This document shows positions 3,544-48,611 of a stretch of DNA of 64,000 nt, one piece after another. A program made the translations under genes and the position numbers. Under the pieces are notes generated by a model. It had not been told where the DNA came from and ran no database searches. It saw only the letters and a program-made list of their open reading frames with translations. The stretch is from Elioraea tepidiphila DSM 17972. GTDB lineage: Bacteria > Pseudomonadota > Alphaproteobacteria > Acetobacterales > Acetobacteraceae. The first letter of the stretch is position 1; each line of letters begins with the position of its first letter. The stretch lies in assembly GCF_000378465.1 (NCBI RefSeq), contig NZ_KB899923.1:1-64000 (forward strand). Direction: 5' to 3'.

Positions 3544-4371
3544 ATGACCCTGCACGACCCGCTCTGGCTCGCCGTACTCGCCGCCGCGATGGCGGTGACG
3601 GGGCTGGTCGCCGGGTTGCTCGCCGGGCTGTTCGGCGTCGGCGGCGGGATCGTGATCGTGCCGGTGCTGTCCTATGTGCTGCCGCCCTTGGGCATCGACC
3701 CAGCGATCCAGCAGAAGCTCGCGGTCTCGACCTCGCTCGCCACCATCATCCCGACCTCGATCGTCTCGGCGCGCAAGCACCACGCCAAGGGGGCGATCGA
3801 CATGCCGCTGCTGCGCGGCCTGATCCCCTCGCTGTTCGCCGGCACGCTGGTCGGCGCGGCGCTGATCGTCGTGCTGCACGGTGAGGCCCTGACGCTCGTC
3901 TTCGCCTTCGTCGCGCTACTGGTGGCGGTCAATCTCGGCATGACCGGGCTCGATTGGCGACTGCGTGACCGCTTCCCGGACGGCGCGGCCCGGCACGCGA
4001 TCGGCGCGGCGATGGGTGCGGTTTCGGCGGTGATGGGGATCGGTGGCGGCACCGTCGGGGTGCCGACCATGAGCATGTTCGGCACGCCGATCCGCAACGC
4101 CGTCGCGACCGCCGCGGCGTTCGGCATCGTCATCTCGGTCCCGGCGACCGTGATCGCGATCGCCGGCGGCTGGGGCGAGCCGCGCATGCCGCCCTACAGC
4201 CTGGGCTACGTGAACCTGATCGGCTTCGCGCTGATCGCCTCGGGCTCGATCCTGGCAGCACCCTGGGGCGCGCAGCTCGCCCACACCCTTCCGCCCCTGC
4301 TGCTGAAGCGCCTGTTCGCCCTGTTCCTGATGCTCACCAGCGTGCGGATGTTCTGGCGCAGTCTGGCGTGA
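3544..4371 (+). CDS. TSUP (TauE/SafE) family membrane permease, second copy
   Basis: 275 residues from ATG 3544 (MTLHDPLWLAVLAAAMAVTG). About eight hydrophobic segments in two homologous halves. The first half carries LFGVGGGIVIVPVLSYVLP and the second VMGIGGGTVGVPTMS, the hallmark glycine-rich loops of TSUP anion exporters. The upstream open frame (to 3340) has no membrane character and was left out. It is not closely similar to the permease at 1162-1926, so this is not a recent duplication. It is divergent from the transglutaminase-like gene across a 146-bp gap, which probably holds both promoters, although I see no clean -35/-10. Confidence 0.85.
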   Translation: MTLHDPLWLAVLAAAMAVTGLVAGLLAGLFGVGGGIVIVPVLSYVLPPLGIDPAIQQKLAVSTSLATIIPTSIVSARKHHAKGAIDMPLLRGLIPSLFAGTLVGAALIVVLHGEALTLVFAFVALLVAVNLGMTGLDWRLRDRFPDGAARHAIGAAMGAVSAVMGIGGGTVGVPTMSMFGTPIRNAVATAAAFGIVISVPATVIAIAGGWGEPRMPPYSLGYVNLIGFALIASGSILAAPWGAQLAHTLPPLLLKRLFALFLMLTSVRMFWRSLA

Positions 4372-4412
4372 GGCCCGGTGGCCAACGGCTCGACCTCTGG
4401 CAGGCGGGCGTC

Positions 4413-4495
4413 GGCGCGCAGGGCTCGTGTGGCGAGCGCGCGCCGAGGAAAGACAACGCCCTGTGCACGAGGGTGAAGCATTCCGGCGCGGGGTA
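4413..4495. repeat. Structured intergenic repeat, copy 1 (core hairpin plus degenerate 3' part)
   Basis: The core hairpin has GGCGCGC at 4413-4419 pairing with GCGCGCC at 4438-4444. An inner GCTCG/CGAGC pair surrounds a TGTGG loop. The downstream stretch to ~4495 (CACGAGGGTGAAGC, then GGCGCGGGGTATG) resembles the third hairpin of the copy at 17155-17197 but no longer pairs perfectly. It lies in the 212-bp gap between the TSUP gene and the glycerophosphodiesterase, so it does not follow the stop codon directly as the other two copies do. Copies 2 and 3 are at 17070 and 48553. Confidence 0.6.
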
Positions 4496-4583
4496 TGGGC
4501 CGATCAGGCGGGGCGTGGCCAAGTCGTCGGCGATGCGCTATCGGATGCGCCAGGCGGCGACGGCAGAGGACAAGGGGAGAGCC

Positions 4584-15280: not shown

Positions 15281-17071
15281 GTGAAACCCGAGCGTCGTCT
15301 GGCCGAGCTGCGCGCCGCCCTGAAGCGCCGGAACCTCACCGGCCTGCTGGTCCCCCGTGCGGACGAGCACCTGAACGAGTACATCCCGGCCTCGGCCGAC
15401 CGGCTGCGCTGGCTGACCGGCTTCACCGGCTCGGCCGGGCTCGCGATCGTGCTCGCGGACAGGGCGGCCATGTTCACCGACGGGCGCTACCAGCTTCAGG
15501 TGCGGGCCGAGGTGGACGCCGCGCACTTCGAGATCCGCCATTCGATCGAGCAGCCCGCCGAGGCATGGCTCGCCGAGGCGCTGAAGCCCGGCGACCGGCT
15601 CGGCTATGACCCCTGGTTGCACGCCGAGGAGGCGTTGGCGAAGCTCCGCCGCGCCGTCGAGGGGGCGGGGGCGGCGCTGGTGCCGGCCGAGCCCAATCCG
15701 CTGGACGAGGTCTGGACCGACCGGCCCGCCCCGCCTGCGAGCCCGGTCGCGCCGCACCCGGCCGTGTTCTCGGGCGAGGACGCGGCCGCCAAGCGCGTGC
15801 GCATCGGCGAGGCGGTGGCGAAGGCGGGCGCGTCGGCCGCCGTGCTGACCGCGCCCGACAGCATCGCCTGGCTGCTCAACATCCGCGGCGACGATGTGCC
15901 CTACAACCCGGTGGCGCTGGCCTTCGCGATCCTGCGCGCCGACGGGCAGGTGAGCCTGTTCCTCGACCCTGCGCGGATCGACCCGGCGACGCGCGCCCAT
16001 CTCGGCAACGGCGTCGCGGTGGAGCCGCGTGCCGCGCTGGCCCCCGCGCTCGACCGGCTGGGGGCCGCGCGCGAGGCGGTACTCGTCGATCCCCGCACGG
16101 CGCCTGCCTGGTTCGCCGAACGGCTGCGGGCGGCCGGCGCGCGTCTCGTCGCGGAGTCCGATCCGGTGGCGCTGCCCAAGGCGACCAAGAACACGGTCGA
16201 GCAGGCGGGCGCCCGCGCGGCGCATCGGCGCGACGCGGTCGCGGTGTGCCGGTTCCTCGCCTGGCTCGACCGCGAGGCGCCGACCGGCGCGCTGACGGAG
16301 GTCGAGGCGGCCGAGCGCCTGCTTGCGTTCCGCGCCGAGGGCGAGCGGTTCCGCGGCGAGTCCTTCCCCGCGATCAGCGGCGCGGGGCCGAACGGCGCGA
16401 TCATCCACTACCGCGCGACCGGGGCGAGCAACCGGCGCATCGTCGCGGGCGACGTCTATCTGAGCGACAGCGGCGCGCAGTATCTCGACGGCACCACCGA
16501 CGTCACGCGCGCCGTGCTGGTCGGCGACCCCCCCGCGGACATCGGCGAGATCCGCGACCGCTTCACCCGCGTGCTGAAGGGACATATCGCGATCGCGACG
16601 TTGCGCTGGCCCAAGGGTGTCGCAGGCCCGCATGTGGAGGCGATGGCGCGCCGTGCGCTGTGGGACGTGGGCCTCGATTACGACCACGGCACGGGCCACG
16701 GCATCGGCTCCTATCTCTCGGTGCACGAGGGGCCGACGGGGCTGTCGCGCGCGGCCCGGCCGATCCCGCTCGCACCGGGAATGATCCTGTCGAACGAGCC
16801 CGGCTTCTACGCGCCGGGACGCTGGGGCATCCGGCTGGAGAACTTGGTGCTGGTGGTCGAGGCACCGTTCGAGGGCGCGGCCAAGTCGTTCCTCGGCTTC
16901 GAGACGCTGACGCTCGCGCCGTTCGACCGGCGGCTCATCGAGCCGGCGCTGCTGATTCCGTCGGAACGGTCCTGGATCGATGCCTACCACGCGCGCGTGG
17001 CGCACGAGGTGGGCCCCCTGCTCGATCCCGCCGACCGGATGTGGCTCGCCGCCGCCTGCCGGCCGCTGTGA
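15281..17071 (+). CDS. pepP: Xaa-Pro aminopeptidase (aminopeptidase P, M24B)
   Basis: 596 residues from GTG 15281. It releases N-terminal residues that precede proline; cytoplasmic, two-metal enzyme. Three domains are visible as in the long (eukaryote-like, ~600-residue) aminopeptidase P. Two creatinase N-domains cover ~1-130 and ~140-300, and the pita-bread catalytic domain follows. Metal ligands fit VYLSDSGAQYLDGTTDVTR (Asp ~396 and ~407), GTGHGIGSYLSVHEGP (His), LSNEPGFY (Glu) and IRLENLVLV (Glu). The ribosome site AGGAG (15263-15267) is 13 bases from the GTG. A five-codon ATG frame (Met-Lys-His-Thr-stop, 15270-15284) lies between and ends on the GTG. A structured repeat starts at the stop codon. 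Confidence 0.93.
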   Translation: MKPERRLAELRAALKRRNLTGLLVPRADEHLNEYIPASADRLRWLTGFTGSAGLAIVLADRAAMFTDGRYQLQVRAEVDAAHFEIRHSIEQPAEAWLAEALKPGDRLGYDPWLHAEEALAKLRRAVEGAGAALVPAEPNPLDEVWTDRPAPPASPVAPHPAVFSGEDAAAKRVRIGEAVAKAGASAAVLTAPDSIAWLLNIRGDDVPYNPVALAFAILRADGQVSLFLDPARIDPATRAHLGNGVAVEPRAALAPALDRLGAAREAVLVDPRTAPAWFAERLRAAGARLVAESDPVALPKATKNTVEQAGARAAHRRDAVAVCRFLAWLDREAPTGALTEVEAAERLLAFRAEGERFRGESFPAISGAGPNGAIIHYRATGASNRRIVAGDVYLSDSGAQYLDGTTDVTRAVLVGDPPADIGEIRDRFTRVLKGHIAIATLRWPKGVAGPHVEAMARRALWDVGLDYDHGTGHGIGSYLSVHEGPTGLSRAARPIPLAPGMILSNEPGFYAPGRWGIRLENLVLVVEAPFEGAAKSFLGFETLTLAPFDRRLIEPALLIPSERSWIDAYHARVAHEVGPLLDPADRMWLAAACRPL

Positions 17072-17197
17072 TGCCTTCCGCACAATGGCCAAGCCTTTGT
17101 GCGGAAGGCATCGCGCGCAGGGCTGGTGTGGCGGCTGCGCGCCAAAGGAAACCTCATACCCGCCGCACGAAGGTGAAACCTTCGTGCGGCGGGTATG
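17070..17197. repeat. Structured intergenic repeat, copy 2 (three consecutive hairpins)
   Basis: The best-formed copy, filling the gap between convergent pepP and lysE-like genes. Hairpin A has arms 17070-17084 and 17098-17112 (15 bp perfect, beginning GATGCC inside the pepP stop). The core hairpin has GCGCGCAG 17113-17120 with CTGCGCGC 17135-17142 around GGCTGGTGTGGCGG. Hairpin B has arms 17155-17173 and 17179-17197 (19 bp perfect, TGAAA loop). There are no T-tracts. Hairpin A plus core recurs at 48553-48611 and core plus a B-like part at 4413-4495. It may act as a bidirectional terminator or as a REP-type element. Confidence 0.75.
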
Positions 17198-17198
17198 A

Positions 17199-17822
17199 TC
17201 AGCGCGCCAGGGCAAGCCGCGCGGCGAGCCCGACGAAGATCGCGCCGGTCGCGCCGTGCAGCCAGCGCACGCCGGGCCCCGCGGAGACACGCGCCGCAAC
17301 ACGGTCCGCGCCGACGATCACCGCGGCGAAGAACGGCACGGAGAGCAGCGGCAGCAGCGGCCCGAGCAGCATCATCTGCAGCCAGACGGGTCCGCGCGCG
17401 GGGTCGACGAACTGCGGCAGGAAGGCCAGGAAGAACATCGTGACCTTGGGGTTGAGCAGGTTGGTGAGCATCCCCTGGACGAAGGCGCGTCGCGCCGGCG
17501 GCGCAGCCGTCAGCGCGCTGCGATCACGTCGGAACGCCGCGCACAGCGCGAGGACACCGAGCCAGAGCAGGTAGGTGGCGCCGACCAGCCGTACCGCCTC
17601 GAACAGCACCGGCGATGCGGCGACCGCCGTCGAGACGCCGAGCGCCGCGAGCGTGATGTGCACCGATGCGCCGGCATAGATTCCGCAGGTCGCGGCCCAG
17701 CCGGCACGCCGGCCACGCGCAAGCGTCTGACCGAGCACGAACGCGGTGTCGGGTCCGGGGACCACGACCATGACCGCGCAGGCGACGAGATAGGTGGCCA
17801 GCACCGCAGGCTCGATCGGCAT
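17199..17822 (-). CDS. LysE/RhtB-family amino-acid exporter
   Basis: 207 residues from ATG 17822 (MPIEPAVLATYLVACAVMVV); a TTG at 17840 is less likely. Six hydrophobic helices, the family's usual length and topology. The signature VVVPGPDTAFVLGQTLARGRRAGWAATCGIYAG at ~20-55 is the conserved LysE/RhtB N-terminal block, and NLLNPKVTMFFLAFLPQFV is the second conserved block. Such proteins export amino acids or homoserine lactones by proton antiport; the substrate is not readable. The stop is 1 bp past the end of repeat hairpin B. Confidence 0.88.
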   Translation of the reverse strand: MPIEPAVLATYLVACAVMVVVPGPDTAFVLGQTLARGRRAGWAATCGIYAGASVHITLAALGVSTAVAASPVLFEAVRLVGATYLLWLGVLALCAAFRRDRSALTAAPPARRAFVQGMLTNLLNPKVTMFFLAFLPQFVDPARGPVWLQMMLLGPLLPLLSVPFFAAVIVGADRVAARVSAGPGVRWLHGATGAIFVGLAARLALAR

Positions 17823-44042: not shown

Positions 44043-44204
44043 CGGAAACAAGCCGGATTGTCTTGGGATTTCCGGGGTTTGTCTTGGCCGCGGGCAATGA
44101 TGAACAGGGGGTTTACGGTCCTCGCGCGTCGGGCATGGGACGAAGCGGGCGATCCGCCAAGTATTCACGATTTGTTCTCGATCTCCAGCGGCGGAGGAAC
44201 GGGG

Positions 44205-44608
44205 TCAGGCGGCCTGTAAGCCGGGTTCTGTCCGGGGTGTCGCCACCCCTGGACGGCCATTCGTCTGGGACGCCCGTTGCCGGACGCCTCGCGCGACCCA
44301 CCCGGGCGGGATGCGCGGGAACGCGCCTGCGGCCGGCCTTTGGGGTCGCCGCCGCCCGCCCCTATTCGGTCTTGCTCCCGGTGGGGTTTGCCGTGCCGTC
44401 CCCGTTGCCGGGGCCGCGGTGCGCTCTTGCCGCACCGTTTCACCCTTGCCGACGGGCCTCGCGGCGCGCCGGCGGTCTGTTCTCTGTGGCACTGTCCCTG
44501 GGGTCGCCCCCGCCGGGCGTTACCCGGCACCGTGTTCCCGTGGAGCCCGGACTTTCCTCACCCCCCGGCCTTTCGGCGGTGGAGGGCGCGGCCGTCCGGC
44601 CGCCTGAC
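44205..44608 (-). ncRNA. rnpB: RNase P RNA, bacterial type A
   Basis: About 404 nt. On the minus strand the ends pair to form helix P1 (44598-44608 with 44205-44215, 11 bp). Near the 5' end GAGGAAAGTCCGGGC (complement of 44545-44559) is the conserved RNase P core. In the middle GGTGAAACGGTGCGG followed by TAAGAGCGCACCGC (complement of 44417-44446) matches the P9-P12 conserved segment. Near the 3' end ACAGAACCCGGCTTAC (complement of ~44216-44231) is the universal 3' motif. Processes tRNA 5' ends with RnpA. Location directly upstream of mraZ is common in alphaproteobacteria. Exact ends are set by P1 and may be off by a few bases. Confidence 0.93.
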
Positions 44609-47786: not shown

Positions 47787-48554
47787 ATGAGCCGACGCTT
47801 CGCTGATCGACGCGCCCTGGTGACGGGCGGGGCCGCCGGGATCGGCCTGGCCACCGCGCGGGCGCTTGCGGCGGAGGGTGCACGCATCGCGCTGCTCGAC
47901 ATCGACGCCCCACGGCTCGATGAGACGGCAGCGGAGCTCCGCGGCACGGGCGCGGAGGTGCATGCGCTCGCCGCCTCGGTCGCCGATCCCGACGCGGTGC
48001 GCGCGGCCTTCGCCGAGCTCGATTCACGCTGGGGTGGGCTCGACATCCTGGTCAACAACGCCGGCGTGATCGGCAAGCGCGCCGCCCTCGATCTCACCGA
48101 CGAGGCATGGTCGCGCGTGATGCGCATCAACCTCGACGGCGTGTTCTACTGCGCGCGCGAGGCTGGCCGGCGCATGGTCGCGCAAGGCTCGGGCGCGATC
48201 GTGAATCTGGGCTCGATCTACTCCCTCGTCGCGGCCCCGGAACGGCTTGCCTATTGCGCGTCCAAGGCCGCGGTCGCGGCGATGACCAAGGTGCTGGCGA
48301 TCGAGTGGGCCGCCCATGGCGTGCGCGTCAATGCCGTCGCGCCGGGCTATGTCGAGACCGACCTGATCGCCGCTGCCGTGCGCGCCGGCGAGATCGACAC
48401 CGTGCCGCTCGCGCGCCGCACGCCGGTCGGACGGCTCGCCCGACCGGATGAGATCGCACGCGCCATCCTGTTCCTGCTCGACCCCGCGAACGCGTACGTC
48501 ACCGGCCACATGCTCGCGGTGGATGGCGGCTGGACCGCCTATGGCTACGTGTGA
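47787..48554 (+). CDS. Short-chain dehydrogenase/reductase, first of a pair
   Basis: 255 residues, 39 bp after the lipoyl gene. Classical SDR: cofactor loop TGGAAGIG (13-20), DID in strand 2 (suggesting NAD over NADP), NNAGV, catalytic serine in NLGSIYS and YCASK (Tyr-x3-Lys). The C-terminal DGGWTAYGYV ends the fold. Probably oxidises or reduces a hydroxyacid, sugar acid or alcohol connected with the E1 substrate. A structured repeat begins at its stop codon, splitting it from the second SDR. Confidence 0.88.
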   Translation: MSRRFADRRALVTGGAAGIGLATARALAAEGARIALLDIDAPRLDETAAELRGTGAEVHALAASVADPDAVRAAFAELDSRWGGLDILVNNAGVIGKRAALDLTDEAWSRVMRINLDGVFYCAREAGRRMVAQGSGAIVNLGSIYSLVAAPERLAYCASKAAVAAMTKVLAIEWAAHGVRVNAVAPGYVETDLIAAAVRAGEIDTVPLARRTPVGRLARPDEIARAILFLLDPANAYVTGHMLAVDGGWTAYGYV

Positions 48555-48611
48555 TGCCGGGGTCACGTCGACGCCGGCATCGCGCGCGGGGCTGGTGGGG
48601 CGGCCGCGCGC
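48553..48611. repeat. Structured intergenic repeat, copy 3 (hairpin A plus core)
   Basis: Hairpin A has GATGCCGG (48553-48560) with CCGGCATC (48574-48581), starting inside the SDR stop codon exactly as copy 2 does in pepP. The core has GCGCGCGG (48582-48589) with CCGCGCGC (48604-48611). Relative to copy 2 the core stem changed A-T to G-C on both arms, a compensatory pair. There is no third hairpin. Confidence 0.7.

What the first reader, a model, noticed from the sequence alone, without database searches (positions are those of the whole stretch)
17070..17197. Three-copy structured intergenic repeat with compensatory stem changes
Seen directly: at 17070-17197, 48553-48611 and 4413-4495 the same composite element appears. 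Copies 2 and 3 both begin GTGATGCC inside the stop codon of the preceding gene, form hairpin A (GATGCC.../...GGCATC), then a core starting GCGCGC and ending GCGCGC around a GGCTGGTG-type loop. Between copies 2 and 3 the core stem changes A-T to G-C on both arms. Copy 1 keeps a core of GGCGCGC/GCGCGCC with its own inner pairing. Copies 1 and 2 share a third part ending GGTATG. Conservation of pairing rather than sequence suggests selection on RNA or cruciform structure. Known comparators are REP/BIME elements mobilised by RAYT transposases. That this is such a family, and whether it is lineage-specific, is inference.
Basis: partly seen in the sequence, partly recalled or inferred. Interest (0 to 1): 0.7.

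Follow-up and report, generated by a model that had tools for sequence, protein, structure and literature searches.

The report
Hairpin mobile elements in stop codons
The three repeats belong to a family of about 130-base, gene-free mobile DNA elements of acetic-acid-bacteria relatives that often insert into stop codons, copy the stop as they land so the gene is unharmed, and leave a row of hairpins at the gene's end.

Summary
The 17070 element is one of at least 43 dispersed copies in this Elioraea-genus genome; the family recurs in Acetobacteraceae (31 of 200 order-level genomes, 16 of 51 genera). Anatomy: hairpin A (TACC...GGTA), a GC-stem core with a largely conserved loop, an A-rich linker, hairpin C (TACC...GGTA). 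Pairing is conserved: 96.2% of cells paired, 22 of 46 pairs changed on both sides.

The element is mobile. The three bases at its two ends match as a TNA target-site duplication: 16 of 21 scored copies in one Acidocella and 33 of 43 scored copies in 14 other genomes; no permutation of 20,000 did as well in either. Nine alignments of empty sites in two sister genomes show the same genes ending in a single TGA. Insertion into a stop codon duplicates the stop, so the gene stays intact.

A RAYT/REP origin is not supported: no Y1 transposase here, no GTAG tag, and a target duplication is made. Best filing: MITE-like, presumably moved by an unidentified DDE transposase; its two-arm plan recalls Caulobacter CIR repeats without their GANTC. 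Host function is unproven, and a 23-to-1 orientation bias is unexplained.

The parts
15281..17071 (+). Upstream gene, M24 peptidase (aminopeptidase P-like); its TGA stop is the insertion target
   Evidence: gene; Pfam
17069..17071 (+). Left copy of the 3-bp target duplication (TGA), also the stop codon
   Evidence: sequence; empty sites in G004 and G001 with a single TGA
17072..17112 (+). Hairpin A, outer end TGCC (a TACC variant)
17113..17142 (+). Core: 8-bp GC stem and 14-nt loop GGCTGGTGTGGCGG
17143..17153 (+). A-rich linker; on the minus strand a U-rich tail after hairpin C
17154..17195 (+). Hairpin C, outer end GGTA (the fold extends the stem into the duplication, to 17198)
17196..17198 (+). 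Right copy of the target duplication (TGA)
17199..17822 (-). Convergent downstream gene, LysE-type exporter, stop at 17199-17201
4369..4498 (+). Decayed full-length copy starting in the stop codon of a TauE/SafE-family gene (3544-4371)
48552..48611 (+). Truncated copy (hairpin A and core only) starting in the stop codon of a short-chain dehydrogenase gene (47820-48554)

Best explanation
The repeat is a non-autonomous mobile element (MITE-like, about 125 bp) with imperfect terminal inverted repeats TACC...GGTA; each end is itself a long hairpin and a short GC-stem core sits between them. It inserts at TNA and duplicates those three bases (shown). A stop codon TGA or TAA is a TNA site that survives insertion because the duplication rebuilds the stop, and gaps between convergent genes are where extra hairpins do least harm, so copies accumulate exactly in stop codons (location shown; the selective reason inferred). 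A transposase acting in trans, most likely of the DDE type because a short duplication of fixed length is made, moved the copies (inferred; the enzyme was not found). Once in place the hairpins lie at the 3' ends of the flanking genes and may slow exonucleases or stop antisense transcription (inferred, untested).
For: Matching 3-bp flanks: 16 of 21 scored copies in Acidocella STC_51 (29 copies were held, 8 had ends the script could not place), permutation mean 6.5, 0 of 20,000 as high. In 14 other genomes 33 of 43 copies with intact ends match (17 of 60 dropped by a fixed rule), within-genome permutation mean 19.6, 0 of 20,000 as high; over all 60 rows I count 46 matches. Nine junction-spanning alignments at eight G000 sites, six in G004 and three in G001, show the same gene ending in a single TGA without the element; two of them (L022, L023) have a 2-3 nt gap beside the junction. 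Stop-codon placement: 25 of 38 G000 copies start in the upstream stop; 34 of 60 copies elsewhere lie exactly in an upstream or a convergent downstream stop (my count). 28 of 38 G000 copies lie between convergent genes, against 7 of 58 gene pairs in the window.
Against: No transposase with matching ends was found. The two ends share few bases beyond TACC in some genomes. In G000 the stop lies at the hairpin A end 23 times and at the other end once (L016), p 3e-6, which a symmetric transposase does not explain. 10 of 43 scored copies and 5 of 21 have unequal flanks. The other two comparisons printed (one in G001, one in G006) are not clean empty sites.
Confidence: 0.87

Rival explanations
1. REP/BIME elements mobilised by a RAYT (IS200/IS605-like Y1 transposase).
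For: Palindromic, intergenic, downstream of genes, composite units, tandem core arrays in one Acidocella (L055).
Against: No Y1_Tnp in this genome and in 10 of 12 carriers; the exact core-loop motif was not found in the two loci that hold a Y1 gene; no GTAG in 20 rows; target duplication and empty sites against the no-larger-duplication rule of that family (PMC2817692 passage).
Confidence: 0.05
2. The element is now kept for a host function as a 3'-end module: the hairpins protect mRNA 3' ends and hairpin C plus linker terminates transcription from the convergent gene.
For: Strong pairing; 28 of 38 G000 copies between convergent genes and none between divergent ones; terminator-like hits on the minus strand of the 17070 copy, 3 nested hits against 0.4 in shuffles; linker A content 0.31-0.65 against 0.13-0.19 in all 17 genome groups tabulated.
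Against: Only one copy was scanned for terminators and its plus strand gave none. The element is absent by the model from three sister genomes (G003, G005, G006) and eight sites are empty in relatives, so no site tested is essential. Insertion rules plus loss of harmful insertions explain the location.
Confidence: 0.25
3. The paired changes come from template switching in quasi-palindromes (mutational correction of one arm from the other), not from selection on structure.
For: Hairpin C loops TGAAA and TTTCA, each other's reverse complement, occur in otherwise alike copies (L026, L028 against the rest), as expected if a loop is flipped or copied from the other strand. Whole arms change in step between subfamilies.
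Against: The short core stem also covaries. Subfamily replacement or recombination between copies gives the same pattern.
Confidence: 0.35

Closest known systems
Bacterial MITEs under 200 bp (Correia/NEMIS, RUP, ERIC; review PMC2229807, passages and section 7 seen)
   Same: Short, no protein gene, inverted ends, target duplication, high copy, empty sites
   Different: TNA 3-bp duplication; each end a separate long hairpin with a third stem between; GC-rich; stop-codon placement; parent IS unknown
CIR repeats of Caulobacter and Brucella (PMC2229807 section 7)
   Same: About 110 bp, alphaproteobacteria, intergenic, two long inverted-repeat arms joined by a linker
   Different: CIR carry GANTC; 0 of 20 copies here do; a stem-loop core takes the place of the plain linker; mobility is shown here
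IS1031 group of the IS5 family (PMC12016507, one passage)
   Same: TNA target preference with a 3-bp direct repeat, there TGA in the reported case
   Different: Terminal repeats of the reported member begin GAACCTG, here TACC; no such parent element found
REP/BIME with RAYT (PMC2817692 and PMC3733652, passages; abstract of the latter)
   Same: Palindromic units in 3' intergenic space, composite units
   Different: No GTAG, no RAYT in most carriers searched, a target duplication; PMC3733652 states that CGTC repeats are missing in Acetobacteraceae

Membership tests
MITE (non-autonomous element moved in trans) | Short, without a transposase gene, with inverted terminal repeats | tested here: met
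   About 125 bp; ends TACC...GGTA, imperfect beyond
MITE (non-autonomous element moved in trans) | Target-site duplication and empty sites in relatives | tested here: met
MITE (non-autonomous element moved in trans) | Shares its ends with an autonomous IS | tested here: inconclusive
   None found: 22 of the 30 DDE_Tnp_1 loci held were inspected, plus a scan of 1.1 Mb of held loci; several carriers are drafts
REP/BIME moved by RAYT | GTAG (or CGTC) tag outside the palindrome | tested here: not met
   GTAG in 0 of 20 rows. CGTC or GACG in 9 of 20 rows, in paired arms in six of them and at the linker in three, with no common place
REP/BIME moved by RAYT | A RAYT (Y1_Tnp) gene in the genome | tested here: not met
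   G000 none; 2 of 12 carriers have one match each
REP/BIME moved by RAYT | No target duplication (IS200/IS605 chemistry) | tested here: not met
   3-bp TNA duplication; rule from PMC2817692 passage
CIR | Two inverted-repeat arms with a linker, about 110 bp, intergenic, alphaproteobacteria | tested here: met
   description from PMC2229807 section 7
CIR | GANTC (CcrM site) motif in a loop | tested here: not met
   0 of 20 rows
IS1031-group derivative | TNA target and 3-bp duplication | tested here: met
   rule from PMC12016507
IS1031-group derivative | Terminal repeats like those of the group (GAACCTG... in the reported member) | tested here: not met
   Ends are TACC...GGTA; compared with one published member only
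Intrinsic terminator | Hairpin followed by a U tract in the transcript | tested here: inconclusive
   One copy scanned: minus strand 3 nested hits against 0.4 expected, plus strand none; linker composition

The most novel reading that the evidence does not exclude
A family-wide class of mobile 3'-end modules: a transposase recognises the folded ends (hairpins of nearly free sequence with a fixed TACC base) rather than a fixed inverted repeat, inserts into stop codons, in some lineages in a set orientation, and so hands genes ready-made two-way 3' ends, with the conserved core loop as the binding site of a protein (transposase or host factor).
Probability: 0.12. Interest if true: 0.88.

Novelty: new variant of a known kind. 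Interest (0 to 1): 0.62.

Why it matters
It is a clean case of a selfish element whose target rule makes it nearly harmless: a TNA target whose duplication rebuilds the stop codon gives it a protected niche at most gene ends and explains why such repeats sit between convergent genes. Filled and empty sites in sister species allow a direct measurement of what an added 3' hairpin does to an mRNA. It also supplies mobility evidence for a two-arm palindromic repeat; for CIR repeats of similar plan the review read here says the mechanism of mobility is not established. If the ends are recognised by fold, it would join a short target duplication with structure-based recognition.

Tried and rejected
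RAYT/Y1 as mobiliser. An IS with TACC ends: 22 of the 30 loci brought by the DDE_Tnp_1 search were inspected for inverted ends, none has TACC; a paired-end scan of 1.1 Mb of held loci found only neighbouring copies of the element (by my reading of its top 40 rows); DDE_Tnp_1_2 genes were found in carriers but those loci were not inspected separately. A G001 contig that ends inside an element end was followed as a possible autonomous copy: no second occurrence. An IS beside an element in G001 (L226) has other ends. No match in the plasmid and phage collections at E up to 1e-3 (the Acidocella form was tried on plasmids only). Rfam at gathering scores gives only RNase P in the window. Selection for one core direction was considered and weakened by subfamily 2 of G001, whose core is inverted. 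The apparent invariance of the core loop was partly made by my own exact-pattern search: in G000, found by BLAST, 25 of 38 copies share the commonest loop and eight other loops occur, and other genera have GGGTTGG forms. Papers: searches list nothing that by title or abstract start describes this repeat; five papers were opened (PMC3733652 passages and abstract; PMC12016507 one passage; PMC2817692 passages; PMC2229807 passages and section 7; PMC2680597 passages, nothing relevant). That covers only the held open-access library.

Full report
What is there. In the strand given, the complete form is: hairpin A, a 30-nt core with an 8-bp GC stem and a 14-nt loop, an A-rich linker of about 11 nt, and hairpin C. 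The copy at 17070 folds at -97.5 kcal/mol, z -13.3. A covariance model of the full element, built from 20 copies (18 of this genome, one each of G004 and G001), finds the same three places in the window and no further good one. The copy at 4413 is a decayed full copy from 4369; the copy at 48553 has no recognisable hairpin C.

Copy number and reach. BLAST with window 17040-17230 gave 58 matches in the genome, both strands counted; 41 core-bearing places were printed and oriented. The model gave 110 matches in G000, again with both strands counted; the capped listing holds 41 distinct G000 places, which with the two other window copies makes at least 43. In the genus, 4 of 7 genomes including this one match by BLAST; by the model G003, G005 and G006 have none and G002 has one. 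A typed 60-nt probe matched 85 of 200 family genomes at E up to 0.01, many of them weakly. The model found 31 of 200 order-level genomes and 16 of 51 genera at E up to 1e-6, with stricter filters; all 31 are of the window's own family. Nothing outside the order was searched.

Structure. On 20 distinct rows, 96.2% of 919 pair cells form standard pairs against 85.1% in shuffles; 22 of 46 pairs have changes on both sides (shuffles 12.1); no shuffle of 500 reached any of the five measures; the slid controls fall to 32-44% paired. Relatedness inflates such counts, but the gap is large. In 97 core copies found by a pattern that left stem positions 6, 7, 24 and 25 partly free, 95 and 96 pair, with three common haplotypes. 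The loop was fixed by that pattern, so its constancy there is no evidence. Among 38 G000 copies found by BLAST the commonest loop occurs 25 times and eight others 13 times; other genera show forms such as GGGTTGG.

Mobility. Aligned by the ends TACC and GGTA, the copies show three bases on either side that mostly agree and have the form TNA. In Acidocella STC_51 the two sides match in 16 of 21 scored copies (29 held), with TCA, TTA, TGA and TAA pairs; permutations average 6.5 and none of 20,000 reaches 16. A second set came from model hits in 14 other genomes: 60 loci, 43 with intact ends by a fixed rule. 33 of the 43 match against a within-genome permutation mean of 19.6, and none of 20,000 permutations is as high; over all 60 rows I count 46 matches. 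Empty sites complete the case. With the element left out in a script, flanks of 15 of 18 G000 copies were searched in six sister genomes. Nine alignments, six in G004 and three in G001, covering eight G000 sites, run across the junction with a single TGA, the last codon of the same gene; two of them (L022, L023) have a 2-3 nt gap beside it, and two further comparisons are not clean. One site is filled in G004 too (L013 and L054), with a very different hairpin A; whether that is one old insertion later altered or two insertions in the same stop is open.

Why stop codons. In G000, 25 of 38 copies start exactly in the stop of the upstream sense gene; 28 of 38 lie between convergent genes, 8 between tandem genes in sense, 2 in antisense, none between divergent genes. 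In the window 7 of 58 gene pairs are convergent, and at those junctions 14 of 18 usable TNA sites are stop codons. The placement therefore needs no stop-codon recognition: a TNA target rule, a duplication that rebuilds the stop, and loss of harmful insertions suffice. In the second set 34 of 60 copies sit exactly in a stop codon by my count of the rows, 21 in that of the upstream gene and 13 in that of a convergent downstream gene (12 with TCA at that end, one with TTA). Gene calls are from a home-made codon-usage caller, checked on five window proteins with Pfam.

What does not fit. In G000 the targeted stop lies at the hairpin A end in 23 convergent copies and at the other end in one (L016), p = 3e-6. 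In G001 none of 49 pattern matches carries the other end of subfamily 1, although the pattern admits it. In Acidocella STC_51 (11 TGA/TAA against 8 TCA/TTA left flanks) and in G164 both orientations occur. A symmetric transposase would not give the G000 pattern. G001 also has a second subfamily with the core inverted and its loop changed, so the bias does not follow core direction. A weak preference for C before the TGA (18 of 21 against 76 of 129, p 0.03) does not explain it.

The missing enzyme. A short duplication of fixed length points to a DDE transposase, by established knowledge of such enzymes. The TNA rule is that of the IS1031 group of IS5 (PMC12016507, one passage), whose name-giving member I recall as coming from an acetic acid bacterium; but the terminal repeats differ, and none of the 22 DDE_Tnp_1 loci inspected has TACC ends. 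Y1 transposases are absent from this genome and from 10 of 12 carriers; the other two have one over-cut-off match each, without the exact core-loop motif in the fetched locus.

Possible effects on the host. Hairpin C followed by the linker reads as hairpin plus U-rich tail on the opposite strand of the one copy scanned, and the linker is A-rich in all 17 genome groups tabulated. This could end transcription coming from the convergent gene; it is a prediction. Pairing in the arms may be kept by transposition, by RNA function, or by template switching in quasi-palindromes; the last is hinted at by hairpin C loops that are each other's reverse complement in otherwise alike copies.

Place among known things. 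It behaves as a MITE and is best filed so, with the caveat that its parent IS is unknown. Its plan of two independent arms joined by a linker is that given for CIR repeats of Caulobacter and Brucella (PMC2229807, section 7), whose defining GANTC is absent here. It is not a RAYT-type REP. Paper searches listed nothing that describes it, and PMC3733652 says that CGTC repeats are missing in Acetobacteraceae.

Verdict. A real, recurrent and mobile element family with an elegant target niche; a new variant of a known kind. Mobility with a TNA duplication is close to certain, the class of enzyme is likely, and any host function is open.

Noticed in passing
L153-L156, L158-L165, L167-L170 (G001): A second subfamily of near-identical copies in the Elioraea sp. 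Yellowstone genome has the core inverted relative to the targeted stop codon and a changed core loop.
   Followed up: partly
L055:7435-7553, L092:5693-5810, L107:4151-4224: In Acidocella sp. RAIPG19 the core occurs in tandem arrays of two or three at 44-45 bp steps, joined by an A-rich linker.
   Followed up: no
L013 (about 1033-1163) and L054: The same stop codon holds an element in G000 and G004, but hairpin A differs almost completely while still pairing.
   Followed up: partly
L026 and L028 (G000): Hairpin C loop TTTCA in place of TGAAA, its reverse complement, in otherwise alike copies.
   Followed up: no
L226:1195-2480 (G001 C24): An IS with a DDE_Tnp_1 transposase and ends GAGACCTGTGCGCGGGAG sits directly against the end of an element copy.
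   Followed up: partly
L044:920-1068 (G000 C3): A core without recognisable hairpin A or C lies just upstream of a tRNA-Met gene (anticodon CAT).
   Followed up: no
L033 (G000 C2, about 211370-211530): Two cores follow each other with a shared hairpin between them, a chimera of two subfamilies.
   Followed up: no
window 44201-44607 (minus): RNase P RNA, bacterial class A (247 bits).
   Followed up: no
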